IMG/VR virus record: IMGVR_UViG_3300037189_033761 | Location: 1 to 37,264 of that record | Origin: a virus | Reading direction: 5' to 3' (one strand) | Length of the DNA: 37,264 bases | Shown here: positions 14,815 to 36,262 of the stretch, one piece after another | Layout of the letters: each line of letters begins with the position of its first letter | Position numbering within the stretch: the stretch's first letter is position 1 | Program-made: the position numbers and the translations under genes | Notes under the pieces: generated by a model | Seen by the model: only the letters and a program-made list of their open reading frames with translations | Database searches by the model: none | Told to the model about the DNA's origin: nothing

Positions 14815-15801
14815 ATGAGAGTAAAGATAGTTGGTTGCGGTCTTTCAGGGGTTACAGCAGCGATCCTTTTGCAAGACAAAGGACATGAAGTAGAAATATT
14901 CGAATCGAGAACACATATAGGTGGTAACTGTTATGATAGTAATGTAGCAGGTACTTTAATGCATAGCTACGGTCCACACTGTTTTCATACAGATGATGAA
15001 GATGTAATGAATTTTTTGAGTCGTTATACTGGTTGGTTAGATTTTCACTTAAGACCAAAAGGCAACACAGAATTAGGCTTGATATCATTGCCTTATAGTA
15101 AAACAACTATCGAAGAGTTGAAAAGAGAATTAACACAAGAAGAAATTATCAAATATATTTTTAAAGGATACTCTGAAAAACAGTGGGGTGTATCGTTTGA
15201 TCAAATCCCTAAGAGTATTATTAGCAGAATTCCAAAAACAGCAGATAAGGTAAATCCAACTTGGTTTGAGGGGCAAAAATATCAATGCGTACCTCTCAAG
15301 GGATATACTGAAATGTTTAAGAGCATGCTTGAAGACATACCTGTACACCTGGGTGTAAAGCAGAATGAATGGAAAAAGGTAGAAGCAGATTTAACCATAT
15401 TTACAGGTAAAATAGATGAGTATTATGATTATATAAATGGCTGGCTGCCCTACAGGTCTTTATATTTTGAGCATACTCTAAGCTATAAAAAACAAGAACA
15501 TTTTATTATAAATCAAAATAAAAAAGAAGTGCCATATACAAGAAGTTATGACCATAGTTACACACATTTTAATCATAAGGGTCCAACAATTATAACAAAA
15601 GAATTTTCTATAGCTCATGATAAGAATAATATACCATTTTATCCGATGCCTTTTGGTGAAGGAGCAGAAATTTATAATAAATATGGTGCGCTAGCTAAAA
15701 AAGAGAAGAATGTAATTTTTCTTGGGCGTCTTGCTACTTACAAGTATCTAGATATGTGGATGGCAGTAAGGCAGGCTATGCAAAAAATAGAGCTAGTTTA
15801 A
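14815..15801 (+). CDS. glf: UDP-galactopyranose mutase
   Basis: 328 aa, slightly short of bacterial Glf (about 370-390). It interconverts UDP-galactopyranose and UDP-galactofuranose using reduced FAD. Visible features are the N-terminal FAD motif 'GCGLSGVTAA' (7-16) with 'IFESRTHIGGNCYD' (29-42), 'YGPHCFHT' near 52, 'YSEKQWG' near 118 and the C-terminal 'GRLATYKYLDM' near 305 that contacts the flavin. It presumably serves phage-directed glycan synthesis or surface modification. It ends convergently with queC, overlapping by 9 nt. No clear promoter box precedes it; the 45-nt gap from the upstream gene suggests read-through. Confidence 0.9.
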   Translation: MRVKIVGCGLSGVTAAILLQDKGHEVEIFESRTHIGGNCYDSNVAGTLMHSYGPHCFHTDDEDVMNFLSRYTGWLDFHLRPKGNTELGLISLPYSKTTIEELKRELTQEEIIKYIFKGYSEKQWGVSFDQIPKSIISRIPKTADKVNPTWFEGQKYQCVPLKGYTEMFKSMLEDIPVHLGVKQNEWKKVEADLTIFTGKIDEYYDYINGWLPYRSLYFEHTLSYKKQEHFIINQNKKEVPYTRSYDHSYTHFNHKGPTIITKEFSIAHDKNNIPFYPMPFGEGAEIYNKYGALAKKEKNVIFLGRLATYKYLDMWMAVRQAMQKIELV

Positions 15802-16533
15802 TTTTTTACAATTATATTTCTTCCAAGGTATCTCAATCTTATAAGAAATAGGGTCTATAAACCCTGCATCTAAAAAGCCTTTGATGCGTAAAGAACAGGC
15901 TGTACATTCACCGCAAGCTTGTTCTTCTCCCTCATAGCAAGTCCAAGTCTGACTAAATTCAACACCAAGCTTAACACCGAGTTTAATGATTTCTTCTTTA
16001 GATTTATCAATTAAAGGAGCTATAACTTTAATCCTGTTTCTTCGATTTAAATCACTAACTTTATTAATTTGATTGAGAAATTCAACACTGCCATCCCAAA
16101 ATCCAGCAATACTATCAGCTTGTGCTGCTCCGTGGAAAACAGCAGAAGCTCCAGTGCTTTCTGCTATACCAAGTGAAATGCTTAAAAGCATTAAATTCCT
16201 AAATGGTACGTAATTGACGGTCTGCGGGTCGCCCATTACATCCTTGGCTTTCGCAATAGCAATATTACTATTAGTTAGTGCAGATGTTTGACAAATATCT
16301 TTAAAAAAAGGAATTTTTATGAATCTGTAGTCAACTGGTTGATCAAGGCTTTCTACCTGAAACGAGGCACAGTTAAGTTCTTTCTCACGATGCTTTTGAC
16401 CATAATCAAAACTTACAGCTACAATACTATCGTATTTACGAGCTGCATAATGTAGCAGGACAGTACTATCCATGCCACCTGAGATAGGTACAACAGCCTT
16501 ACTCGACTGGCTCTTCTTCTGTTTGCGCTTCAT
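15793..16533 (-). CDS. queC: 7-cyano-7-deazaguanine (preQ0) synthase QueC
   Basis: 246 aa, normal length for QueC. It converts 7-carboxy-7-deazaguanine to preQ0 using ATP and ammonia. The PP-loop 'SGGMDS' is at residues 18-23, and the C-terminal zinc site carries four Cys ('CYEGEEQACGECTAC', about 214-228). It overlaps the end of uvsX by 35 nt, so translation is coupled. FolE (33579) and QueD (35549) supply the upstream steps; QueE is not in the window. The end product may be a modified base in phage DNA or queuosine in tRNA. Confidence 0.93.
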   Translation of the reverse strand: MKRKQKKSQSSKAVVPISGGMDSTVLLHYAARKYDSIVAVSFDYGQKHREKELNCASFQVESLDQPVDYRFIKIPFFKDICQTSALTNSNIAIAKAKDVMGDPQTVNYVPFRNLMLLSISLGIAESTGASAVFHGAAQADSIAGFWDGSVEFLNQINKVSDLNRRNRIKVIAPLIDKSKEEIIKLGVKLGVEFSQTWTCYEGEEQACGECTACSLRIKGFLDAGFIDPISYKIEIPWKKYNCKKLN

Positions 16534-20645: not shown

Positions 20646-21281
20646 TCAAGGATTAACTGTATTGAGATTGACACGTTCTTTAGATTTGTACGGAAAGTTA
20701 TATAGCTCGTAGTATTTATTGATGTTTTCTTCGTTTTCTAAAAATCTAGATTCAGCAACTTTTCTTGCTTTAGCACATGTATTCATGTATTTGCCTTTCT
20801 TGGAAAGCGTTGTAACAACTTGATCAACCATCTCATCACCCGTCTTGAATTTTATAGGTGCATCTTCATACGTACATAAATCCTGACATGCAATTGGAAT
20901 GCCATAACATGACGCCTCAATATACTTTAAGTCGCTCTTCGCTTTGTTGAAAGTGCTATCCTGTAGAGGAGCTACCATCATGTTGCATTTTAAATTGTAA
21001 ATTTTTTCGGGGTAGTTATATAGCTGCGACCATGGGTGGAATTCTATCTTACCTTCGCGTACAAAAGGAGTTAATCTAAGAGGAAATGCACCGAGAAATA
21101 CCCATTGAAACTTATCTACTGTCTTAGCAATTACATCAAATACATGTGCGAAGTCATCATTTTGATTTACTCTATTATCTACGTCAAAATGTGCGCCTGA
21201 CCCGGCATACAAAATACGAGGACGCTTTTCATATGCATCATAATTATCAGAGATCTTCTTTTCATTATAAAAATTACCCAT
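20646..21281 (-). CDS. Glycosyltransferase, C-terminal half (split gene)
   Basis: 211 aa if read from the ATG at 21281 (213 from 21287). It carries the GT-B C-terminal features 'RPRILYAGSGAHFD' near residue 20, 'KFQWVFLGAFP' near 57 and the donor-site region 'DLKYIEASCYGIPIAC' near 115. The start overlaps the stop of the upstream half as TGATG, in the -1 frame. The joined sequence would read ...PPKW-MGNFYNE..., which is continuous and plausible for a single enzyme. Either a true two-subunit arrangement with coupled restart or a frameshift of one ancestral gene. Confidence 0.7.
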   Translation of the reverse strand: MGNFYNEKKISDNYDAYEKRPRILYAGSGAHFDVDNRVNQNDDFAHVFDVIAKTVDKFQWVFLGAFPLRLTPFVREGKIEFHPWSQLYNYPEKIYNLKCNMMVAPLQDSTFNKAKSDLKYIEASCYGIPIACQDLCTYEDAPIKFKTGDEMVDQVVTTLSKKGKYMNTCAKARKVAESRFLENEENINKYYELYNFPYKSKERVNLNTVNP

Positions 21282-21856
21282 CACCATTTGGGTGGGTAAT
21301 TAGGAATCACTGTTACATTCTGATTTTTAGTCTTGGATTTATAATAATCGCGCATAAAATTACATGTAACTGTAACTTCATCGCACATTTCCATAATTTC
21401 TTGACAATTTTTTCTGATTGACGGATCAGTAAAAGCTGGTTTAAATTTGTTATAGTCAGGAATATCCTCACTAAAAACTAAGTCATCTATTTCGTAGATG
21501 ATCTTAAAGCCCATTTGTTGAGAAATGCGCTTCAAGTGTCTGACAAACTCAAGCTGATGACTAGTAGCTTGCCTCTGAATACGTACAGTCTTAACGCCGC
21601 GATAATAATTAGGATCAAGCACCATAACAGTGCTGCCATGTACTATCATTTTTTGATGCGCATTTAGTAAGTGCTCTGGCCAAATCATACGCCAAAAGCC
21701 ACAGCCACTATAATCAGCATAATAATTAAGAGAGCGTGTAAGGTTTAATTCAGGTGGCACTGGTAGATCTTGTTTTGGTGCTACGGGTGCTTGTGGAGCG
21801 GCATATGCTGGAGCAAAAGGTGAAGCAAAGGGAGAGACAAATGGGCTTGAAAACAT
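21281..21856 (-). CDS. Glycosyltransferase, N-terminal half (split gene)
   Basis: 191 aa. A Pro/Ala-rich repetitive N-terminus (SPFVSPFASPFAP) precedes a GT-B-like N-terminal domain with 'IIYEIDDLVF' near residue 133 and 'EVTVTCNFMRDYY' near 168. It ends at a TGA immediately after 'IPNYPPKW', exactly where the next frame continues. Alone it lacks the nucleotide-sugar half. It follows gp46 by 10 nt. Confidence 0.7.
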   Translation of the reverse strand: MFSSPFVSPFASPFAPAYAAPQAPVAPKQDLPVPPELNLTRSLNYYADYSGCGFWRMIWPEHLLNAHQKMIVHGSTVMVLDPNYYRGVKTVRIQRQATSHQLEFVRHLKRISQQMGFKIIYEIDDLVFSEDIPDYNKFKPAFTDPSIRKNCQEIMEMCDEVTVTCNFMRDYYKSKTKNQNVTVIPNYPPKW

Positions 21857-27111: not shown

Positions 27112-27119
27112 TATAAATA
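27112..27119 (+). promoter_or_regulatory. T4-type late promoter TATAAATA
   Basis: Perfect consensus. Unlike most boxes here it leaves a 24-nt leader before the ATG at 27144, with a possible weak AAAGG ribosome-binding sequence. It lies in the divergent gap from uvsY. Confidence 0.75.
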
Positions 27120-27143: not shown

Positions 27144-27398
27144 ATGATATCATTCAAGCAATATTATAATGAACAAAATACGGCTGGAGCTGGAGGCGCA
27201 TTAGGCTCTTGGACTAGTACAGGTGGTCAATTTCCGGCATCTGGTGATGCAGGTTATGCACCAGGAGATGCAAGACAATTGAGTCCTTATGGTCCTGCGG
27301 GCGCTGTACTTGGTGCAAAAATAAAAGGCAAGGGTAAGAAAAAGAAAGTAAAGCTTAATATACAGCGCAGACCGTTGCCAGGTTTGACATTGAAGTAA
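27144..27398 (+). CDS. Small Gly-rich late protein with capsid-targeting-like N-terminus
   Basis: 84 aa, not recognised. It begins MISFKQYYNEQNTAGAGG: Phe4, Tyr7-Tyr8, then Asn-Glu followed by Gln, fitting the head-targeting/cleavage pattern. After this the chain is Gly/Ala/Pro-rich, with a basic patch (KGKGKKKKVK, near residue 60) that could bind DNA. This resembles small basic internal head proteins. First gene of the plus-strand accessory block. Confidence 0.6.
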   Translation: MISFKQYYNEQNTAGAGGALGSWTSTGGQFPASGDAGYAPGDARQLSPYGPAGAVLGAKIKGKGKKKKVKLNIQRRPLPGLTLK

Positions 27399-27401
27399 AT
27401 A
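27394..27401 (+). promoter_or_regulatory. Weak late-type box (AGTAAATA)
   Basis: Two mismatches to TATAAATA, 4 nt before the ATG at 27406, overlapping the stop of the upstream gene. Confidence 0.3.
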
Positions 27402-27405
27402 TATA

Positions 27406-27822
27406 ATGGATTTAGGTCATTGGCTTGTTAATGAAGGTGTTATTTTTAATGAAGAAACATTTGGCTTTATTTACGAAATAATTAATACTGCAACTGGTAA
27501 GAAATATATTGGCAAAAAACAGTGTAAAACAAAATTAAAAAGAAAACCATTAAAAGGTAAAAAAAATAAACGAATTGAAATAAAGGATTCAGATTGGAGA
27601 GAGTATACTAGTTCATCAACTGAGCTAAATGAAGATATAAAAAAGTATGGTAAAAATAAATTTATTTTTAAAATTATAAAAATTTGTGGCAGCAAGTGGG
27701 AGCTTGCTTATTTTGAAATTAAAGAACAAATAGACAAAAATGTACTATTCCGGGAAGATTATTATAACGGTATTATAAATGTCAGAATAGGGCGGCCTCC
27801 AAAAAAATTGCTTGAAGACTGA
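27406..27822 (+). CDS. GIY-YIG nuclease-domain protein (SegE-like)
   Basis: 138 aa. The GIY-YIG fold is visible: 'GFIYEI' at 21-26, 'KKYIGKKQ' at 34-41, a 'SDWREYTSSS' segment near 63, 'DIKKYGKNKFIFKII' near 77, a catalytic-type Glu in 'LAYFEIKEQI' near 100 and 'YYNGIINVRI' near 118. It resembles SegE-type phage nucleases but lacks a DNA-targeting domain. The N-terminus MDLGHWLVNEG has a hydrophobic-x-x-Glu site before the domain, so it might be head-delivered rather than a homing enzyme. Confidence 0.75.
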   Translation: MDLGHWLVNEGVIFNEETFGFIYEIINTATGKKYIGKKQCKTKLKRKPLKGKKNKRIEIKDSDWREYTSSSTELNEDIKKYGKNKFIFKIIKICGSKWELAYFEIKEQIDKNVLFREDYYNGIINVRIGRPPKKLLED

Positions 27823-27844
27823 TAATTTATAGGCATACTATATT

Positions 27845-28408
27845 GTGCTTAGGGAACTAGTAAAAGACCAATATAATCTTCAGATTTTTAATTATGAGTA
27901 TATATTTAAAAATTATATTGAGAGGCAATTTATAGATGATCTCTATAGCTATAAACTCTTAGAAAAAAAGAAAGACTCAACTGTACGGCGCTTGTTTATT
28001 CATCACAATATTCATGCAATATGTGATTATATTCTAAAAGAGAAAAAGAAAGGTAAACAAGTACTGTTTTTTGACTATCATAATTTATTGGAAGGTGAGA
28101 TATTAGAATATATAGAAGAAAGCAGAATTAAAAGCTATCTTAATTACACCTATCATAAGATAAAATCTACACTGCCAATGCGCATATATTTCTCTACTTT
28201 TTCTTTTGAATACTTTATACATAAGTATGAGAAGAATGCAGGCATAGGTATAGAAACTATGCTTAAAATTAGAAACTTAGCAGAAAATAACGGTTTTGAG
28301 AAGTTTACCTTTGAAAAAGTAAAGAAATTTGTTAAAAGAGAAGAACTAACCTTTTTAGATAAAACCTATTTTAATAGCTTAAAATCTAAACAATTACTCA
28401 TTAATTGA
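27845..28408 (+). CDS. Hypothetical protein
   Basis: 187 aa, not recognised, with a GTG start and no upstream in-frame ATG. It is helical and unusually rich in Tyr, Lys, Ile and Phe; no Cys cluster or TM helix. A 'GKQVLFFDYHNLLEGE' segment near 74-89 has a nucleoside-triphosphatase or PIN-like look (strand ending in Asp) but is not sufficient to assign a family. It lies between the GIY-YIG gene and a head-type gene on the same strand. Confidence 0.55.
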   Translation: MLRELVKDQYNLQIFNYEYIFKNYIERQFIDDLYSYKLLEKKKDSTVRRLFIHHNIHAICDYILKEKKKGKQVLFFDYHNLLEGEILEYIEESRIKSYLNYTYHKIKSTLPMRIYFSTFSFEYFIHKYEKNAGIGIETMLKIRNLAENNGFEKFTFEKVKKFVKREELTFLDKTYFNSLKSKQLLIN

Positions 28409-28414
28409 TAAATA
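28407..28414 (+). promoter_or_regulatory. Late-type promoter box (GATAAATA)
   Basis: One mismatch to TATAAATA, 6 nt before the ATG at 28421. It would drive the four-gene run 28421-31776. Confidence 0.7.
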
Positions 28415-28420
28415 TTAATA

Positions 28421-28852
28421 ATGAGATTTCTTCAAAAGCTTAATGAATATGTTGTTTCTTTAGAGCAAGATGAGCAGTCAATTAACACGCAAGCAGCTCC
28501 TGCAGAGCCAGCTCCTAAAACTAAGAAAGAAATACAGAAAGTTGATGTTGCTCCAGAGGGTTATACTGAGATGGTTAGGCTAATGGCAAAAGCATTAGTA
28601 ATGAATGTTCCTCCGGAGGCTATTGATGATCTATTTACTACAAAAGTAACAGGTGAGAACGTTGAAGCTATAAGAGAAGGGTTAGAAGATTTAATTAACA
28701 CATCATCCAATTATCAAGACAATCCCGAAAGATTAGAAAATCCTCATTTTAAAGCATTCTATAATTCGGTTAATGAGAAAAATTTTTATAAAAAATTTAA
28801 AGAAGTTGTTAGCATGATGAAGAAATATAGTAACGATATAGATTTTTCTTGA
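28421..28852 (+). CDS. Hypothetical late protein with capsid-targeting-like N-terminus
   Basis: 143 aa, not recognised. N-terminus MRFLQKLNEYVVSLEQDEQ: Phe3, then Tyr10, then SLE before Gln, the same pattern as the gene at 3526. A Pro/Ala-rich linker (about 25-45) leads to a helical, acidic C-terminal domain. First gene of an operon with nuclease-like, ligase-like and nucleotidylyltransferase genes. Likely an internal head protein. Confidence 0.6.
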   Translation: MRFLQKLNEYVVSLEQDEQSINTQAAPAEPAPKTKKEIQKVDVAPEGYTEMVRLMAKALVMNVPPEAIDDLFTTKVTGENVEAIREGLEDLINTSSNYQDNPERLENPHFKAFYNSVNEKNFYKKFKEVVSMMKKYSNDIDFS

Positions 28853-28853
28853 T

Positions 28854-29993
28854 ATGAAAAGGTATAGGCCGTTAGATGAGATTTATGTAAAAGAATCGTG
28901 TGGTAAAGTTCTGCCGCCGCTTCCTAGGCAAATACTTGAGCGTGTAAAAATATCTGTTCAAACTGACACAGGAGAAACAGAAAACTATACAGTTTCAGAT
29001 TCTTGGTATAATAAAGCTATTAAAGATAAACTTTCTGTTGGAAGTCAAAATCTTGATACTTACTATGAATTAATACATTTAAGATGTGTTGATGCTGGTA
29101 TTCTTCCAGCTGGTCATGAAGATATAAATGCAAATGAAGTAAAAGTTTTATACAATTATATTCTTTCCATAACGGGTCAAGATAAAATTAATGCATTTTT
29201 TGAGAAATTTGTAGATGAAGGTCAGAAAGCAGCTGCAATATTTGTAAGTGAAATAGATAAGAATGAAAAATTTAATGTATTTGATTTGCTGAGTTCCTTT
29301 TATGGTGTAAAATTTGTTTATAGTGAAGATGTTTTTAAACTAAGGCCATTAGCTGCAGCTCAAAAAACTAGAGGCGCGCCAGGACCAGGAGAGGCTTTTA
29401 TAGCATTTTTCTTCTTTAGTAAAAAGCCTGAGGTTGGTGATTTAAGTATACCTGCAGGTAACAAATTTGTTGAAATAGAAATAAAGAAACAAGGTGGTAG
29501 AATAGGCAAAGGTCTTAATATAGAGAGTGGTAAATTAGGAAGACGTCTATATCCAAATCTTAAAACTTTAGACACAAATGTATTAAAGGAATTTGTTGAA
29601 TTTTATAATTTACAAACAGTGGGCGACATTCTCCTGGGTAATAAAACATTTCCTGGTATTACAGGAGTTAGAGCTATTCCAAATCAAAACTTAGATCAGA
29701 ATTTTTTTGAGCAATCATTAGATTATTTTGTTAAAGCTTTTAGTAGTTTAGAGGTTTTGCAACAATTTATAGGTGTAATACAAATGAAGAACTATTTTTC
29801 AAAAATAAAAGAATTTGATAGTATATTAATTTTTACTGAAACCGGTTTAGCTATAGGATTTAAGAGAGAATATGTGCTGAACAATTCTACTTCTGATGTG
29901 GCTAATAACCTGCTTGCTAAGAAAGTTTATTTAAAAAGAAAGACTGAAGCTGGTATATTATTTGATTCAGATGGCTTCAGAATTGTTATATGA
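28854..29993 (+). CDS. Putative PD-(D/E)XK nuclease-like protein
   Basis: 379 aa, no named family known to me. The central part fits a restriction-type nuclease core: Glu180 in 'GPGEAFIAFFF', 'GDL' with Asp196, then 'FVEIEIKK' with Glu209 and Lys211, followed by 'GGRIG' (214-218). This E...D...ExK arrangement with a Gly-Arg-Ile-Gly tail is common in such enzymes. The N-terminus 'DEIYVKES' has a hydrophobic-x-x-Glu site. It starts 1 nt after the upstream stop and overlaps the ligase-like gene by 4 nt. The catalytic assignment is a motif-level inference. Confidence 0.6.
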   Translation: MKRYRPLDEIYVKESCGKVLPPLPRQILERVKISVQTDTGETENYTVSDSWYNKAIKDKLSVGSQNLDTYYELIHLRCVDAGILPAGHEDINANEVKVLYNYILSITGQDKINAFFEKFVDEGQKAAAIFVSEIDKNEKFNVFDLLSSFYGVKFVYSEDVFKLRPLAAAQKTRGAPGPGEAFIAFFFFSKKPEVGDLSIPAGNKFVEIEIKKQGGRIGKGLNIESGKLGRRLYPNLKTLDTNVLKEFVEFYNLQTVGDILLGNKTFPGITGVRAIPNQNLDQNFFEQSLDYFVKAFSSLEVLQQFIGVIQMKNYFSKIKEFDSILIFTETGLAIGFKREYVLNNSTSDVANNLLAKKVYLKRKTEAGILFDSDGFRIVI

Positions 29994-31225
29994 ACTCATT
30001 CAGAGAATATCTCTTATTAGAAGGTGGAGCTGCTGGGCATATGGCTCATCCTTTTGATCTTCAGAGCATAAAAAGAGGTACTGACTTGATTCAATTTTTT
30101 AAAGCAGCTGTAAAGAGTGTTGAGAGTCAGAAAACTGCAGTTAAGTTTGATGGTCTTAATGCTAGTGTTAAGATCATAAAGAATGAAGATGGCAGGTATG
30201 AATATGCTCTTGATAGAGGCAGTGCAAAAGAAATAGATATAAAAGGTATTACGCAGGCTAATCTTGAGCAAAGATTTGAGAAAGGACATGGTATGATAGA
30301 TGTTGTTAATTTTATACTGCCTATTTTAAATAGTACTATTGATGTTACAAGTGAAGAAATAAAAAAATTAAACTTACTTAAGCCAGGTGTTTTTCTTAAT
30401 ATTGAGTATATTACCAAGCAAACTAACGTTACACAGTATGATAGAAATATGGTTGTTATACATGGTATAAATCAATTTATTCCGCGTATTGGTAAGAATA
30501 ACAGAATATTAAGCAGATCTGCTGTTGAAATACCTTATAATAAAAATGTTTTAAACGAGTTTGTTAAAAAAATTAAGCCAGTATTTGCGCAACATGATTT
30601 TGAAGTGTTTGGTCCTACAGGTACAAAATTTGATAAAAAACCAAATTTTGAATCAATTTTAAACAAACCTTTCGGTATTGCGTTTACTGAAACTGATACA
30701 GAAACAAGAACTCTCGGTAATTGGCTCAAGACAGCAAGAAATCCAAAAAATATTTTAATAAAAAATATTCAAGGTAAAAAAGTACCTGCTATGTCAAAGA
30801 ATTATTATCAATATGTACTAGGTGGGTCACCTATCAGTAAGCTTGTGGGTGAAGATAAAGCAGCACAAAAATCTGTTGCTGATGGAGCAATCTTTTACCA
30901 AGCTACAAGATTGCTTGGTAATGAGTTGTTGAACTCTCTCTCCTCAGAAGCAGGTGAACTCAAGCAACATGAGGGTATAGTTATAAGAGATAATAGACTT
31001 TCTACTGTACCTGTAAAAATAACGGGAGAATTTATCTTGAAAGGATTAGCTAGTCCTTTCAAGAAATCAGAGGATGATGAAGATTTGGAAAATACTACAG
31101 GTGTATCAGGTTTAATTGGGTCATTAAATTACGCTAACACGACAGGTGATTATATGAATAATAAGAGCAAGTATAGATTGCCTCCTTATGATGCACCGCC
31201 AAATCCAGGAGCTTATACAGGATGA
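29990..31225 (+). CDS. Ligase-like covalent nucleotidyltransferase with capsid-targeting-like N-terminus
   Basis: 411 aa. It shows the ligase/capping superfamily motifs: motif I 'KFDG' at 52-55 with Lys52 as the nucleotidylated residue, a motif III-like 'FLNIEY' with Glu139, motif IV 'EGIVIR' at 328-333 and motif V-type Lys343 in 'VPVKITG'. The order and spacing fit an enzyme that adenylates itself and seals or modifies nucleic acid ends. I believe it belongs with a DUF6267-type phage family. The N-terminus MNSFREYLLLEGG is the clearest head-targeting match here (LLE then Gly). It overlaps both neighbours by 4 nt. Confidence 0.78.
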   Translation: MNSFREYLLLEGGAAGHMAHPFDLQSIKRGTDLIQFFKAAVKSVESQKTAVKFDGLNASVKIIKNEDGRYEYALDRGSAKEIDIKGITQANLEQRFEKGHGMIDVVNFILPILNSTIDVTSEEIKKLNLLKPGVFLNIEYITKQTNVTQYDRNMVVIHGINQFIPRIGKNNRILSRSAVEIPYNKNVLNEFVKKIKPVFAQHDFEVFGPTGTKFDKKPNFESILNKPFGIAFTETDTETRTLGNWLKTARNPKNILIKNIQGKKVPAMSKNYYQYVLGGSPISKLVGEDKAAQKSVADGAIFYQATRLLGNELLNSLSSEAGELKQHEGIVIRDNRLSTVPVKITGEFILKGLASPFKKSEDDEDLENTTGVSGLIGSLNYANTTGDYMNNKSKYRLPPYDAPPNPGAYTG

Positions 31226-31776
31226 AATTTAGTGAGTATTATCTTTATCTAGAGCAGGCCGCAAAATCACTTGTTATACTTCCTGGTGGATTTAAGCCGC
31301 CACATAAAGGTCATTTTGAAGCATTAAAGTATTTGTTGAAAAATTCTAATGCAAATAATGCTATAGTATTTATAGGTAAAAAAGATAGAGATGGTATTAC
31401 TCAGGAACAGTCTCTAAAGATATGGGATATATATAAAAAGTATATACCAGCAAATATAGAGATTATTGCTGTAACAGGAGCAGATAAAGCAGGTAGAGAG
31501 GCAACACCATTGAGCATGACTTATGATTTTATTGAGGACAATAAGAATAATTATGCTGGGTTTTTTGTTGGCGCAGGACAAGAGGATATGAATAGGTTTA
31601 AAGGATTAGAGAAAGATCAACAAAAATATCCTAATACAAAGATCATAGCTATACCGCCTCAATTTAATAGAATTTCTGGTACAGAAACAAGAAACAAATT
31701 GAAAGGAGGTATTTTAGATTTTATACCTCAAGAAGTAAAAGAAAAAGAAGAAATTAAATCTATTCTAAAAGCTTAA
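31222..31776 (+). CDS. HxGH nucleotidylyltransferase (cytidylyltransferase-like) with capsid-targeting-like N-terminus
   Basis: 184 aa. The alpha-phosphate-binding motif 'PPHKGH' gives HxGH at 28-31, and 'ISGTETR' at 151-157 corresponds to the ISSTxxR motif of NMN, pantetheine-phosphate and related adenylyl/cytidylyltransferases. The substrate is unknown. The first residues MKFSEYYLYLEQ fit the cleavage pattern (YLE before Gln) and lie just before the catalytic domain. The ATG overlaps the ligase-like stop, so the two enzymes are made together. Its 3' end overlaps the minus-strand gene by 17 nt. Confidence 0.82.
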   Translation: MKFSEYYLYLEQAAKSLVILPGGFKPPHKGHFEALKYLLKNSNANNAIVFIGKKDRDGITQEQSLKIWDIYKKYIPANIEIIAVTGADKAGREATPLSMTYDFIEDNKNNYAGFFVGAGQEDMNRFKGLEKDQQKYPNTKIIAIPPQFNRISGTETRNKLKGGILDFIPQEVKEKEEIKSILKA

Positions 31777-32518: not shown

Positions 32519-32809
32519 ATGACATTATTTGAGAAAGCTTTTTTAAATTTGCTGAATAATGATATTATTAATGAAAATAAGGGTCATAGGTGTACAAAGG
32601 TCACAGGGCAGATGTCATCTACAAGATCTGATAAAAAGTATATGAGATGTGCTAGAGTTAACGGTAAGCTGAAGAGAGTACATTACGGTGATCCAAATTT
32701 AAGAATAAAGAAATCCAATTCCAAGCGCAGAAAAAGTTTCAGAGCTCGTCACAAATGTTCTTCCGCAAAGCCAGGTACACCAAAATACTATAGCTGTAAA
32801 AATTGGTAG
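32519..32809 (+). CDS. Small basic Cys-containing late protein with capsid-targeting-like N-terminus
   Basis: 96 aa, strongly basic. N-terminus MTLFEKAFLNLLNNDIINEN has Phe4, Phe8 and 'IINE' before Asn. The rest resembles a conserved phage small protein with 'RVHYGDPNLRIKKSNSKRRK' near 56-75, 'SFRARHKC' near 76 and a C-terminal 'YYSCKNW'; four Cys may bind zinc. Basic character fits DNA contact inside the head. Function unknown. Confidence 0.65.
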   Translation: MTLFEKAFLNLLNNDIINENKGHRCTKVTGQMSSTRSDKKYMRCARVNGKLKRVHYGDPNLRIKKSNSKRRKSFRARHKCSSAKPGTPKYYSCKNW

Positions 32810-32824: not shown

Positions 32825-33232
32825 ATGATTAGTTTTCGAGAATTTCATAATAAAAATGTGCTCGGTGTGAGGGAGCAAATACATTTATTGGATCATCCTG
32901 AATTAGGAGAAATACCTGTTAAGGTTGATACAGGCAATGAAGCATACAACGTATTGCATGGTGTAAATATAAAAGATAAAGGCGATCATGTCACCTTTAA
33001 ATCTGTAAATAACAAAGAATTAACTTTACCAAAAATTGATACAGTCACTATTCACATAGGTAGCGGTGTTAAAGAGGAAAGACCGGTAGTAAAGCTAAGC
33101 TTTAATATGAATGGTATAGAGTATAAAGATGTTCCATTTAGCATAGCCGATAGGTCAGAAAATGAAGAAGCAGTATTGCTGGGAGAACCTTTTCTTAAAC
33201 AAACAAATTCAGTTGTTGATGTTAAAAAGTAA
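32825..33232 (+). CDS. Retropepsin-like aspartic protease-fold protein
   Basis: 135 aa. 'GEIPVKVDTGNEAYNVLHG' (28-46) carries the Asp-Thr-Gly of retropepsin-like proteases, in the form seen in the RimK-associated 'ATP-dependent zinc protease' family (PF05618, DTGA..SALH). The C-terminal 'DVPFSIADRSENEEAVLLGEPFL' also fits that family (DR..m..P.LLGR..L). Such domains dimerise to form the active site. The N-terminus MISFREFHNKNVLGVREQ resembles the head-targeting tails. Its 3' end overlaps the minus-strand gene by 24 nt. Confidence 0.72.
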   Translation: MISFREFHNKNVLGVREQIHLLDHPELGEIPVKVDTGNEAYNVLHGVNIKDKGDHVTFKSVNNKELTLPKIDTVTIHIGSGVKEERPVVKLSFNMNGIEYKDVPFSIADRSENEEAVLLGEPFLKQTNSVVDVKK

Positions 33233-33578: not shown

Positions 33579-34220
33579 TTAGTTTTGCGCAAATTCAACA
33601 AACTTATAAAATTCAGCTCTAGAGTTGTCATTATTATCTAAAAATGCACCAGACATTCTAGCAGTACGCATTGTAGAATCATGGCGTATACCACGGTTAG
33701 AGCAGCAGGTGTGATTTGCTTCAATCATTACTGCAACACCATTATTTTTCTCGCAAACTTTATCTACATGTGCATGAATTTGCATTGTAAGGTTCTCTTG
33801 CACCTGAGGTCGACGAGCAAACCAATCCACAATACGATTGAGCTTACTTAGACCAATAACTTTACCTTCTTTAGAAGGTATATATGCAACATGTGCAACG
33901 CCTGTAAAGGGTGCATGATGATGAGAGCAAAGTGATGTTAATTTAATATTATTTTGACACACCATGCCGTCGTATTGATCAATATTATCAAAAGCTGTTA
34001 TCTTCGGTGGCTTGCTATAGCAACCCCATGCAAAATCTTCTACAAAAGCCTTAGCAACACGGTGTGGTGTATTGTCACTATTTGGATCGTTTCTCCAGTC
34101 ATATCCTAGTGCATCCATATAAGCCTCATAAGCTTTTGAGGCTCTTTCAATTATTTGCTCTCTTTCTTCTTGAGAATGGGGGTGATTATGATTAGCGAAA
34201 GCGAGTTTTACTTTAGACAT
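33579..34220 (-). CDS. folE: GTP cyclohydrolase I (FolE)
   Basis: 213 aa. It converts GTP to 7,8-dihydroneopterin triphosphate, the first step towards folate and towards preQ0/queuosine. Zinc ligands are in 'LCSHHHAPF' (Cys98 and a following His) and 'NHTCCSNRG' (Cys172); the C-terminal '[10 protein letters not shown]' is the usual active-site end. I chose the Met at 34220 because a TATAAT box lies 7 nt upstream; a longer frame to 34280 would run through that box and the divergent promoter. It works with QueD and QueC. Confidence 0.93.
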
Positions 34221-34227
34221 ATGTGTT

Positions 34228-34233
34228 ATTATA
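34228..34233 (-). promoter_or_regulatory. TATAAT -10 box before folE
   Basis: Perfect -10 hexamer 7 nt before the ATG at 34220. It is divergent from the late box at 34256-34263, again pairing an early-type with a late-type promoter. Confidence 0.5.
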
Positions 34234-34255
34234 TGATAAGAGTTAGCAGTTTCAA

Positions 34256-34263
34256 CATAAATA
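34256..34263 (+). promoter_or_regulatory. Late-type promoter box (CATAAATA)
   Basis: One mismatch; ends 5 nt before the ATG at 34269 and decides that start against upstream in-frame Met codons. Confidence 0.7.
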
Positions 34264-34268
34264 TTAAT

Positions 34269-34703
34269 ATGGGATTTCATACCAGAATAGACGAATCTCT
34301 AAGAACAACAAATCTTAGAAGAATAAGAATAAAGACTGATCCTTCAAAAGTAGCAAACAACGAAGACTTTAAAAATGTTGAAGGCTATGAAGGCTATATT
34401 CTAGGTGAGTGCAGGGGCATGTTGAAGGTATTGGTTTTAGCACCAGATATGCCTATTATGGATATACCTCCAGAAGTGCTTGAACATATATATGATGATC
34501 AAGTGGGTGATGTTCTAAGTGAATTTAAAAACTATGCTAAAGAATATCTCATTAAAAATAAAAATAAGAAACAAAATGATCCGGTTTTTGTTAATATAGA
34601 TAATTCTTCTGAATATAATGAAATTGAATCATTTTTAAAACAGGGTGGTGTTAGTGATGAAGAATTAAGTAAAATATATAGGGAGTTTATAGAACGTGAG
34701 TAA
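34269..34703 (+). CDS. Hypothetical late protein
   Basis: 144 aa, not recognised. A basic N-terminus is followed by a beta-rich segment '[20 protein letters not shown]' (40-59) and '[15 protein letters not shown]' (61-75), then a helical, acidic C-terminal half. It looks like a small structural protein. Promoter and start are clear; the N-terminus does not match the head-targeting pattern. Overlaps the next gene by 8 nt. Confidence 0.6.
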
Positions 34704-35548: not shown

Positions 35549-36262
35549 ATGAAATTTGAGAGTACAAAAGTAATAGAGTTAGGCTCATGCGCATTTAGAC
35601 AGTGGAGAGCAGATAGTCATTGCAAGTTTATACATGGATACAGATTGGTTGGTAAATTTTGGTTTGAATGCAGTACACTGGATGACAGAAATTGGGTTGT
35701 TGATTTTGGTGGATTAAAGGAGCTTAAACAGGTACTAGAAAAACAGTTTGATCACACATTATGTATTGCTAGTGATGACCCGCTTTTGAATAATTTTAAA
35801 CAATTACATGAATTAGGAGCAGTAGATCTAAGAGTTATGCCTAGAGGAGTTGGTATCGAGAGAACAGCAGAATGGTGTTTTGATGTTGCTGATGCTCATG
35901 TGAGAGGCATTACAAAAAATAGATGTTGGGTTAGCAGGGTTGAAGTATGGGAGCATGATAAAAATTCAGCAATTGCTAGCCTAGATTATGTACCAATTCC
36001 TAGCGATTTTAATCCTTATGCATCTGATAAACATGTAAAGACCAATTCAACCATTACACCTGCACTCGAGCCAGTCAATGCAACAAATGCAGGTATTAAT
36101 GTAGCTACAGTAGTTGCAGCAGCTGCACCTGAAACAATTACCTCTACTGGTGGTCAAATTGAAAATATTCCTTTAAAGAAAGAGATCAAGGGTGCTCCAG
36201 TAGGTAATAAGGTAACTAAGGGTTGGTCAAACCCGTTTGAAGGCACTAGCTGGGGTAGATGA
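35549..36262 (+). CDS. queD: QueD-like 6-carboxytetrahydropterin synthase with C-terminal extension
   Basis: 237 aa, about 80 longer than usual QueD. It turns the FolE product into 6-carboxytetrahydropterin, the substrate of QueE. The core has 'CAFRQWRADSHCKFIHGY' (14-31), 'WVVDFGGLKELK' (49-60) and 'FDHT' (67-70), with 'VEVWEH' near 145. The usual zinc pair His-Gly-His is His29-Gly-Tyr31, so the metal site is unusual. Residues 150-237 form a low-complexity Ala/Thr/Val linker ending in 'GWSNPFEGTSWGR'. ATGA-coupled to the next small gene. Confidence 0.82.
   Translation: MKFESTKVIELGSCAFRQWRADSHCKFIHGYRLVGKFWFECSTLDDRNWVVDFGGLKELKQVLEKQFDHTLCIASDDPLLNNFKQLHELGAVDLRVMPRGVGIERTAEWCFDVADAHVRGITKNRCWVSRVEVWEHDKNSAIASLDYVPIPSDFNPYASDKHVKTNSTITPALEPVNATNAGINVATVVAAAAPETITSTGGQIENIPLKKEIKGAPVGNKVTKGWSNPFEGTSWGR

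What the first reader, a model, noticed from the sequence alone, without database searches (positions are those of the whole stretch)
28407..31776. Coupled nuclease-like / ligase-like / nucleotidylyltransferase operon, all with head-targeting-like tails
Four genes follow one late box and overlap or nearly touch (28852/28854, 29990/29993, 31222/31225): a head-type protein, a protein with an E...D...ExK nuclease-like core, a ligase-superfamily protein with motifs I, III, IV and V intact, and an HxGH nucleotidylyltransferase. Each begins with a hydrophobic-x-Glu tail. This looks like a cut-and-seal or nucleotide-modifying system delivered with the genome, perhaps for end repair, cofactor supply or counter-defence on entry. 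I know of no described system of this make-up.
Basis: partly seen in the sequence, partly recalled or inferred. Interest (0 to 1): 0.85.

Follow-up and report, generated by a model that had tools for sequence, protein, structure and literature searches.

The report
Phage ligase–NMNAT module, probably virion-packaged
A T4-like phage carries a linked set of genes for a nuclease-like protein, a ligase-like protein and an NAD-making-type enzyme, some with tags that look like 'pack me into the head' signals; the ligase–NAD enzyme pair recurs, often fused, in hundreds of T4-like phages and may be their unrecognised DNA or RNA sealing machine.

Summary
The four ORFs are real and the domain calls largely hold. 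The ligase-like protein (29990-31225) keeps motifs I, III, IV and V invariant in 38 aligned sequences, and its AlphaFold model retrieves mainly ligase/capping nucleotidyltransferases, though weakly. The next protein is an HxGH NMNAT-type enzyme; the one before has an invariant PD-(D/E)XK core. In 75 of 80 relatives the ligase-like domain is adjacent or fused (in either order) to the NMNAT domain; three of the five exceptions are cut by contig ends. A hydrophobic-x-E|GG site precedes the ligase domain even inside unrelated fusion linkers, and relatives encode a T4-type prohead protease. The nuclease's tail is not conserved, and the 'late box' is weak. The ligase-like protein is a distant relative of Pfam DUF6267, unnamed in the papers searched, which neighbours or is fused to the 'cytidyltransferase' in many cyanophages; that enzyme has been found in cyanophage virions. 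T4-like cyanophages lack a recognised DNA ligase. Most likely an NAD+-coupled end-sealing module, packaged in this clade; donor and substrate are unknown. No activity was tested. The combination appears undescribed; the parts belong to known superfamilies.

The parts
27112..27119 (+). TATAAATA, candidate T4-type late promoter for the block 27144-31776
   Evidence: 24 nt before the ATG at 27144; exact matches are at chance frequency in the window, position is the only support; phage encodes a gp55-type late sigma
28408..28415 (+).
   Evidence: probably not functional for this gene
28421..28852 (+). hd143: small protein with CTS-like N-terminal tail (MRFLQKLNEYVVSLE), function unknown
   Evidence: tail in 21/29 distinct relatives; found in 34 loci, conserved position
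28854..29993 (+). nuc379: PD-(D/E)XK nuclease-like protein (E180, D196, E209-x-K211)
   Evidence: invariant residues; weak fold hits include HincII and Hjc (E 0.4-4, not significant)
29990..31225 (+). lig411: covalent-nucleotidyltransferase (ligase) superfamily protein
29990..30022 (+). N-terminal tail MNSFREYLLLE of lig411; predicted prohead-protease cut after Glu11, before Gly12
   Evidence: cleavage itself not tested
30038..30058 (+). HxxHPFD motif (residues 17-23), near-invariant; HxxHPxD-like in DUF6267
30143..30145 (+). Lys52, motif I (KFDGLN), predicted adenylylated lysine
   Evidence: 45/45
30404..30406 (+). Glu139, motif III
30971..30973 (+). Glu328, motif IV (HEGIVI)
31016..31018 (+). 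Lys343, motif V (PVKITG)
31222..31776 (+). NMNAT-type HxGH nucleotidylyltransferase with CTS-like tail MKFSEYYLYLE
31303..31314 (+). HKGH (residues 28-31), HxGH active-site motif
27144..28408 (+). three upstream genes of the same + strand block (84 aa protein with CTS-like tail, SegE-like GIY-YIG protein, 187 aa unknown) conserved with it

Best explanation
The ligase-like protein and the NMNAT-like enzyme form one functional unit: an NAD+-coupled end-sealing module. Proposed steps: (1) the HxGH enzyme makes NAD+ from NMN and ATP; (2) the ligase-like protein takes AMP onto Lys52, from NAD+ (releasing NMN, which the first enzyme recycles) or from ATP; (3) it seals 5'-phosphate/3'-OH ends of DNA or RNA; (4) the PD-(D/E)XK protein trims or opens ends for it. 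In the window's clade the ligase-like and NMNAT-like proteins carry N-terminal scaffold-targeting tails, are packed into the prohead, cut by the gp21-type protease at hydrophobic-x-E|G, and enter the host with the genome. Supported by sequence comparison: domain identities, linkage and fusions, conserved tail and cut-site motifs. Inferred: catalysis, NAD+ as donor, substrate, packaging of the ligase, role of the nuclease. My separate estimates: one functional unit about 0.85; packaged in this clade about 0.7; NAD+-coupled sealing chemistry about 0.45.
For: Motifs I/III/IV/V invariant, also in 45 sequences including distant huge-phage members. AF2 pLDDT 83; the top ~20 PDB matches are mostly nucleotidyltransferases: Trl1, capping enzyme, AsfvLIG, T4 DNA ligase, REL1 (each E > 0.02). 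NMNAT domain fused or adjacent in 75/80 loci: 36 NMNAT-LIG, 17 LIG-NMNAT, 22 adjacent; the three states need at least 8 changes on the tree, though a few truncated loci are labelled from incomplete data. The pair recurs in cyanophages as DUF6267 + cytidyltransferase, split or fused; profile comparison with DUF6267 gives P=1.8e-6 over 298 columns with motifs in register. phi-x-E|GG conserved before the ligase domain in unrelated contexts. CTS-like N-termini cluster in one island of a relative's genome, 9/14 vs 11/177, p=3e-7. Prohead protease PF03420 in 7/8 relatives. Virion mass spectrometry of NMNAT-like homologues: S-SM1, S-SZBM1, S-SCSM1, S-CBWM1, S-CREM2. PD-(D/E)XK-like signatures, read by eye, upstream of DUF6267 in several other phages.
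Against: No biochemical data. PDB fold matches are individually weak with low TM-scores. Proteins end soon after motif V, so there is no OB-fold/motif VI as in DNA ligases and capping enzymes. Donor (NAD+ or ATP) and substrate cannot be read from sequence. Cyanophage DUF6267 mostly lacks the tail and is not in the S-SZBM1 virion table; one ligase clade starts directly at M-GG, so packaging of the ligase is not general. In some cyanophages DUF6267 is not next to the cytidyltransferase (S-SM2, MC09, ACG-2014f, S-SCSM1). The NMNAT branch of the window is divergent (about 20% identical to the other branch) and its substrate is unproven. The authors of PMC10665884 note that virion detection may be carry-over. 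The nuclease has no significant fold match, and its relation to the cyanophage neighbours was judged by eye. The CTS pattern was written after seeing the tails.
Confidence: 0.45

Rival explanations
1. It is the missing replicative/recombination DNA ligase of T4-like phages that lack gp30: it seals Okazaki fragments during replication, the NMNAT keeps NAD+ up, and packaging is secondary or absent in most clades.
For: No PF01068, PF01653 or PF09414 match in the seven IMG/VR relatives' contigs and no PF01068/PF01653 in 10 of 11 DUF6267 phages tested, while T4 and KVP40 have gp30 and no DUF6267. PMC2984593 states that g30 homologues are not found in cyanomyoviruses and mentions unidentified distant homologues as one possibility. 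In several cyanophages the gene lies just downstream of gp43-uvsX-gp41-mazG.
Against: Stenotrophomonas phage DLP6 has both a gp30-type ligase and DUF6267, there with a CTS-like tail. The window genes sit among genes with CTS-like tails. No OB domain. The same distribution is expected if the phages simply use the host ligase, which the review thinks more probable. Contigs may be incomplete.
Confidence: 0.22
2. Virion-delivered RNA repair: the protein is an RNA ligase that repairs tRNAs or rRNA cut by host anticodon nucleases, with NAD+ supply against NAD-depleting defences.
For: Motif I K-x-D-G-x-N resembles Rnl2-type RNA ligases (family knowledge); weak PF09414 RNA_ligase matches in 3 of 38 members (best E 0.16); best fold matches are tRNA ligase Trl1 and other RNA-end enzymes; RNA repair and NAD+ restoration are known phage counter-defences (PMC7824862, PMC9503650).
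Against: No kinase/phosphatase or 2',3'-cyclic-phosphate enzyme recognised among the linked genes; no significant RNA-ligase family match; the usual RNA repair partners (Pnkp, RlaP) were not seen in the operon.
Confidence: 0.18
3. The ligase-like domain is not a nucleic-acid ligase but transfers AMP (or another nucleotide) to a protein or small molecule; the pair makes or uses an adenylated cofactor to reprogramme or protect the host early in infection.
For: No OB domain or motif VI; unusual invariant HxxHPFD motif before motif I; a large insert between motifs III and IV (about 190 residues); pairing with a small-molecule adenylyltransferase; in Flavobacterium phage immuto the NMNAT domain is instead in one protein with a GS...DLD (pol-beta-type) nucleotidyltransferase motif.
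Against: Known K-x-D-G enzymes with this motif order act on nucleic-acid ends; nuclease-like neighbour.
Confidence: 0.15

Closest known systems
Pfam PF19782 DUF6267 (T4-GC71) with phage cytidyltransferase (T4-GC190, phrog_3041) of Kyanoviridae
   Same: Same motif order (HxxHPxD, KxDG, EGxV, KxVxR), same partner enzyme adjacent or fused in many genomes, in some a PD-(D/E)XK-like gene before it; NMNAT half carries a CTS-like tail and has been found in virions
   Different: 15% identity in profile alignment; cyanophage DUF6267 mostly has no tail; Pfam gives DUF6267 no function and the window protein does not score with it
Covalent nucleotidyltransferase superfamily (RNA/DNA ligases, capping enzymes: Trl1, REL1, Rnl2, T4 DNA ligase)
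   Same: Motifs I, III, IV, V; AF2 model retrieves them first in PDB
   Different: No OB-fold/motif VI after motif V; about 190-residue III-IV spacing; extra HxxHPFD motif; no significant sequence match to any named family
T4 internal proteins IPI-III and Alt (capsid targeting sequence, cut by gp21)
   Same: Short N-terminal hydrophobic tail ending in phi-x-E, often before a small residue; gene island with such tails; gp21-type protease encoded by relatives
   Different: Cargo here looks like a nucleic-acid/NAD enzyme pair; cleavage and packaging not shown
Phage NAD+ salvage (NadV with NadM or NadR)
   Same: HIGH/HxGH NMN-adenylyltransferase-type domain
   Different: Known NadM is fused to Nudix and NadR to a kinase (PMC9503650); here the partner is a ligase-like domain

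Membership tests
Covalent nucleotidyltransferase (ligase) superfamily | Motif I KxDG with nucleophilic lysine | tested here: met
   K52, D54, G55 in 45/45 sequences
Covalent nucleotidyltransferase (ligase) superfamily | Motifs III, IV, V in order | tested here: met
   E139, E328-G329, K343 in 45/45
Covalent nucleotidyltransferase (ligase) superfamily | Nucleotidyltransferase fold | tested here: inconclusive
   AF2 pLDDT 83; top PDB hits mostly superfamily members but none at E <= 0.001, low TM-scores
Covalent nucleotidyltransferase (ligase) superfamily | Self-nucleotidylation at the motif I lysine | not testable with these tools
   needs assay
DNA ligase / mRNA capping enzyme | OB-fold domain with motif VI after motif V | tested here: not met
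   350-aa members leave no room for one after motif V; in the window 68 residues follow K343, mostly low confidence in the model
NAD+-dependent DNA ligase LigA | Match to PF01653 (adenylation domain) | tested here: not met
   no PF01653 match in relatives' contigs, which include these genes; HxxHPFD is only a positional analogue of the NMN-binding domain Ia (inference)
DUF6267 (PF19782) | Match to the Pfam model | tested here: not met
   no match for the window protein; not among the families matched by the 38 members
DUF6267 (PF19782) | Distant homology by profile and fold | tested here: met
   hhalign P=1.8e-6, Prob 90 with distant bridging members, weaker without them; BFVD hit to S-PM2 protein E 7.6e-5
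NMNAT / HIGH nucleotidylyltransferase | HxGH and SxTxxR motifs, profile match | tested here: met
NMNAT / HIGH nucleotidylyltransferase | NMN or NaMN as substrate | not testable with these tools
   profile also matches PPAT
PD-(D/E)XK nuclease | Conserved E...D...ExK core | tested here: met
   E180, D196, E209, K211 invariant in 24 aligned sequences
PD-(D/E)XK nuclease | Restriction-endonuclease-like fold | tested here: inconclusive
   AF2 pLDDT 72; HincII and Hjc among weak hits
T4-type internal head protein | N-terminal CTS ending at phi-x-E cleavage site | tested here: met
   met for ligase, NMNAT, hd143; not conserved for the nuclease
T4-type internal head protein | Presence in virions | not testable with these tools
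   only for NMNAT-like cyanophage homologues, from papers

The most novel reading that the evidence does not exclude
DUF6267 and its relatives are a new, OB-less class of NAD+-recycling polynucleotide ligase, the unrecognised ligase of gp30-less T4-like phages, which in some clades is also packed in the head as a protease-processed enzyme pair and injected to seal incoming nucleic acid.
Probability: 0.15. Interest if true: 0.9.

Novelty: new variant of a known kind. Interest (0 to 1): 0.7.

Why it matters
T4-like cyanophages are abundant marine viruses and have been reported to lack a recognised DNA ligase; a widespread gene pair of theirs (DUF6267 plus a virion-found 'cytidyltransferase') has no assigned role. 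Finding ligase motifs in DUF6267 and in its relatives here, and repeated fusions to an NMNAT-type enzyme, turns this into a directly testable question: is it a ligase, does it use NAD+, and is it injected?

Tried and rejected
Single-sequence Pfam, PHROG and NCBIfam searches of ligase and nuclease gave nothing usable; a GrpE hit (E 9e-5) and leucine-rich PDB hits are short matches I regard as chance. tblastn of ligase and nuclease in annotated phages: none. A profile scan for the nuclease failed for lack of conserved stretches. hhalign of the ligase family to DUF6267 found nothing in the first run; it needed a low -mact setting (E 4e-4) and distant bridging sequences (P 1.8e-6), so that link is good but parameter-sensitive. 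Cellular origin thought unlikely: only 6 hits in a scan of 84,980 genomes, all in MAG or uncultured assemblies and plausibly phage contigs. The late box at 28407 rejected as this gene's promoter. No defence-system match in PADLOC. One regex run returned nothing because of a pattern error and was repeated. A scripted search for the PD-(D/E)XK signature upstream of DUF6267 in IMG/VR cyanophage loci found it in Syn9 only.
Full report
WHAT IS THERE. The window is a 37,264-base fragment of a T4-like phage (virus record) with UvsW, UvsY, gp55-type late sigma, gp46/47-type SbcCD, UvsX, DNA polymerase and DnaB-type helicase genes. The four reported ORFs are present at 28421-28852, 28854-29993, 29990-31225 and 31222-31776 on the + strand. 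They belong to a longer + strand block from 27144.

LIGASE-LIKE PROTEIN. Single-sequence searches find no family. An alignment of 38 sequences (relatives 38-76% identical to it) keeps K52, D54, G55, N57, R76, G77, E139, E328, G329 and K343 invariant; adding seven distant members from huge phages, Microcystis phage Mel-JY01 and MAG contigs leaves K52, D54, G55, E139, E328, G329, K343 in 45 of 45. AlphaFold2 gives pLDDT 83. The best PDB matches are mostly ligases and capping enzymes, but none has E below 0.02 and TM-scores are low. In BFVD it matches viral proteins, several annotated 'cytidyltransferase-like', down to one of Synechococcus phage S-PM2. The S-PM2 protein d138 is DUF6267 plus CTP_transf_like; Syn9 has them as neighbouring genes gp183 and gp184. 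A profile alignment joins the window family and DUF6267 at P=1.8e-6 over 298 columns, with HxxHPxD, motif I, IV and V in register; without the bridging sequences it is 4e-4. No paper in the library names DUF6267.

NMNAT-TYPE ENZYME. Its family profile finds archaeal NMNAT MJ0541 (1f9a) at 3e-10 and also PPAT; the substrate is therefore open. The domain lies next to or in one protein with the ligase-like domain in 75 of 80 loci: 36 NMNAT-LIG, 17 LIG-NMNAT, 22 adjacent; three of the five exceptions are cut by contig ends. The three states need at least eight changes on the ligase tree, with the caveat that a few truncated loci are labelled from incomplete data. In cyanophages the pair is adjacent or fused in S-PM2, Syn9, P-SSM4, ACG-2014d, S-CAM3 and S-SZBM1, but not in S-SM2, MC09, ACG-2014f and S-SCSM1.

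NUCLEASE-LIKE PROTEIN. 24 aligned sequences, most 15-25% identical to the window protein, keep G177, E180, G195, D196, E209, K211, a PD-(D/E)XK core. Fold matches include HincII and Hjc but are not significant. In Syn9, ACG-2014d, P-SSM4, S-SZBM1, S-CAM3, Melnitz-3 and DLP6 the gene before DUF6267 shows PD-(D/E)XK-like signatures; I judged these by eye and they are not one obvious family. In the IMG/VR cyanophage loci a scripted signature was not found in the upstream neighbours examined.

TAILS AND PROCESSING. A CTS-like N-terminus occurs in 19/21 distinct ligase, 14/17 NMNAT and 21/29 hd143 sequences against few or none at internal methionines; for the nuclease 6/23. The ligase domain is preceded by phi-x-E|GG in nearly all forms, whether the upstream sequence is a short tail (MITFKQFLLE) or the unrelated linker of a fusion (EYLVYNLLTE, FKKLLME, NEHLLVE); a clade without a tail starts exactly at M-GG. 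A few members depart from it, such as L217 (LLLMGG) and L034 (LLLCGG). Seven of eight relatives' contigs encode a PF03420 prohead protease. In one relative the CTS-like genes form an island, 9 of 14 against 11 of 177, p=3e-7; the pattern was written after seeing the tails. T4 uses such tails to load internal proteins (PMC3012670). NMNAT-like homologues have been detected in virions of S-SM1 (PMC3037559), S-SZBM1 (PMC9146016), S-SCSM1 and S-CBWM1 (PMC9602691) and S-CREM2 (PMC10665884), with carry-over not excluded by the last authors. In S-SZBM1 the cytidyltransferase (tail MRFRQFIIE|A) and the gene after it are detected; the tailless DUF6267 protein _141 and gene _142 are not in the table.

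MISSING LIGASE. Seven IMG/VR relatives and ten DUF6267 phages have no recognised ATP- or NAD+-dependent DNA ligase; T4 and KVP40 have gp30 and no DUF6267; DLP6 has both. A review says g30 homologues are not found in cyanomyoviruses; it names unidentified distant homologues as a possibility but thinks use of the host ligase more probable (PMC2984593). The replicative-ligase reading is a serious rival, weakened by DLP6.

MECHANISM AND NOVELTY. I think ligase and NMNAT work as one unit and that end sealing coupled to NAD+ is the most economical chemistry, because a NAD+-dependent ligase releases the NMN that the partner would turn back into NAD+. That step, the substrate and the packaging of the ligase are inference. 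Components belong to known superfamilies; the combination, and ligase motifs in DUF6267, appear undescribed in the papers searched.

Noticed in passing
window 32825-33232: Retropepsin-like aspartic protease relative (NF052264 E 1.4e-5, below cut-off) with a CTS-like N-terminus in 17 of 19 relatives (background 2/14); a possible second head-associated protease.
   Followed up: no
window 27406-27822: SegE-like GIY-YIG protein (PF19835 E 1e-28), found in 38 loci and fixed in the operon in about 30; PHROG labels its best family 'NAD synthetase', a name also used in the immuto annotation, probably a misannotation.
   Followed up: no
window 33579-34280, 35549-36262, 15793-16533: FolE-like, QueD-like and QueC-like genes (the first and last by sequence look only): a possible 7-deazaguanine DNA modification pathway.
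   Followed up: no
window 20646-21856: Two overlapping ORFs match the two halves of one glycosyltransferase family (phrog_7162); a relative (L078) has one ORF matching both, so this copy may be frameshifted.
   Followed up: no
window 32519-32809: Small basic protein (phrog_7595, function unknown) found in 40 loci; CTS-like tail in 15 of 33 distinct relatives.
   Followed up: no
L082 14140-16863 (Flavobacterium phage immuto): NMNAT domain in one 907-aa protein with an N-terminal GS...DLD (pol-beta-type) motif and an HExxH-like stretch; no ligase domain found.
   Followed up: partly
L015 7875-9086: Ligase gene lies on the opposite strand to its nearest usual neighbours.
   Followed up: no
L198 (Methylophilales phage Melnitz-3) genes 15-18: Four consecutive genes (PD-(D/E)XK-like, DUF6267, unknown, NMNAT-like) all begin with CTS-like tails.
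   Followed up: partly
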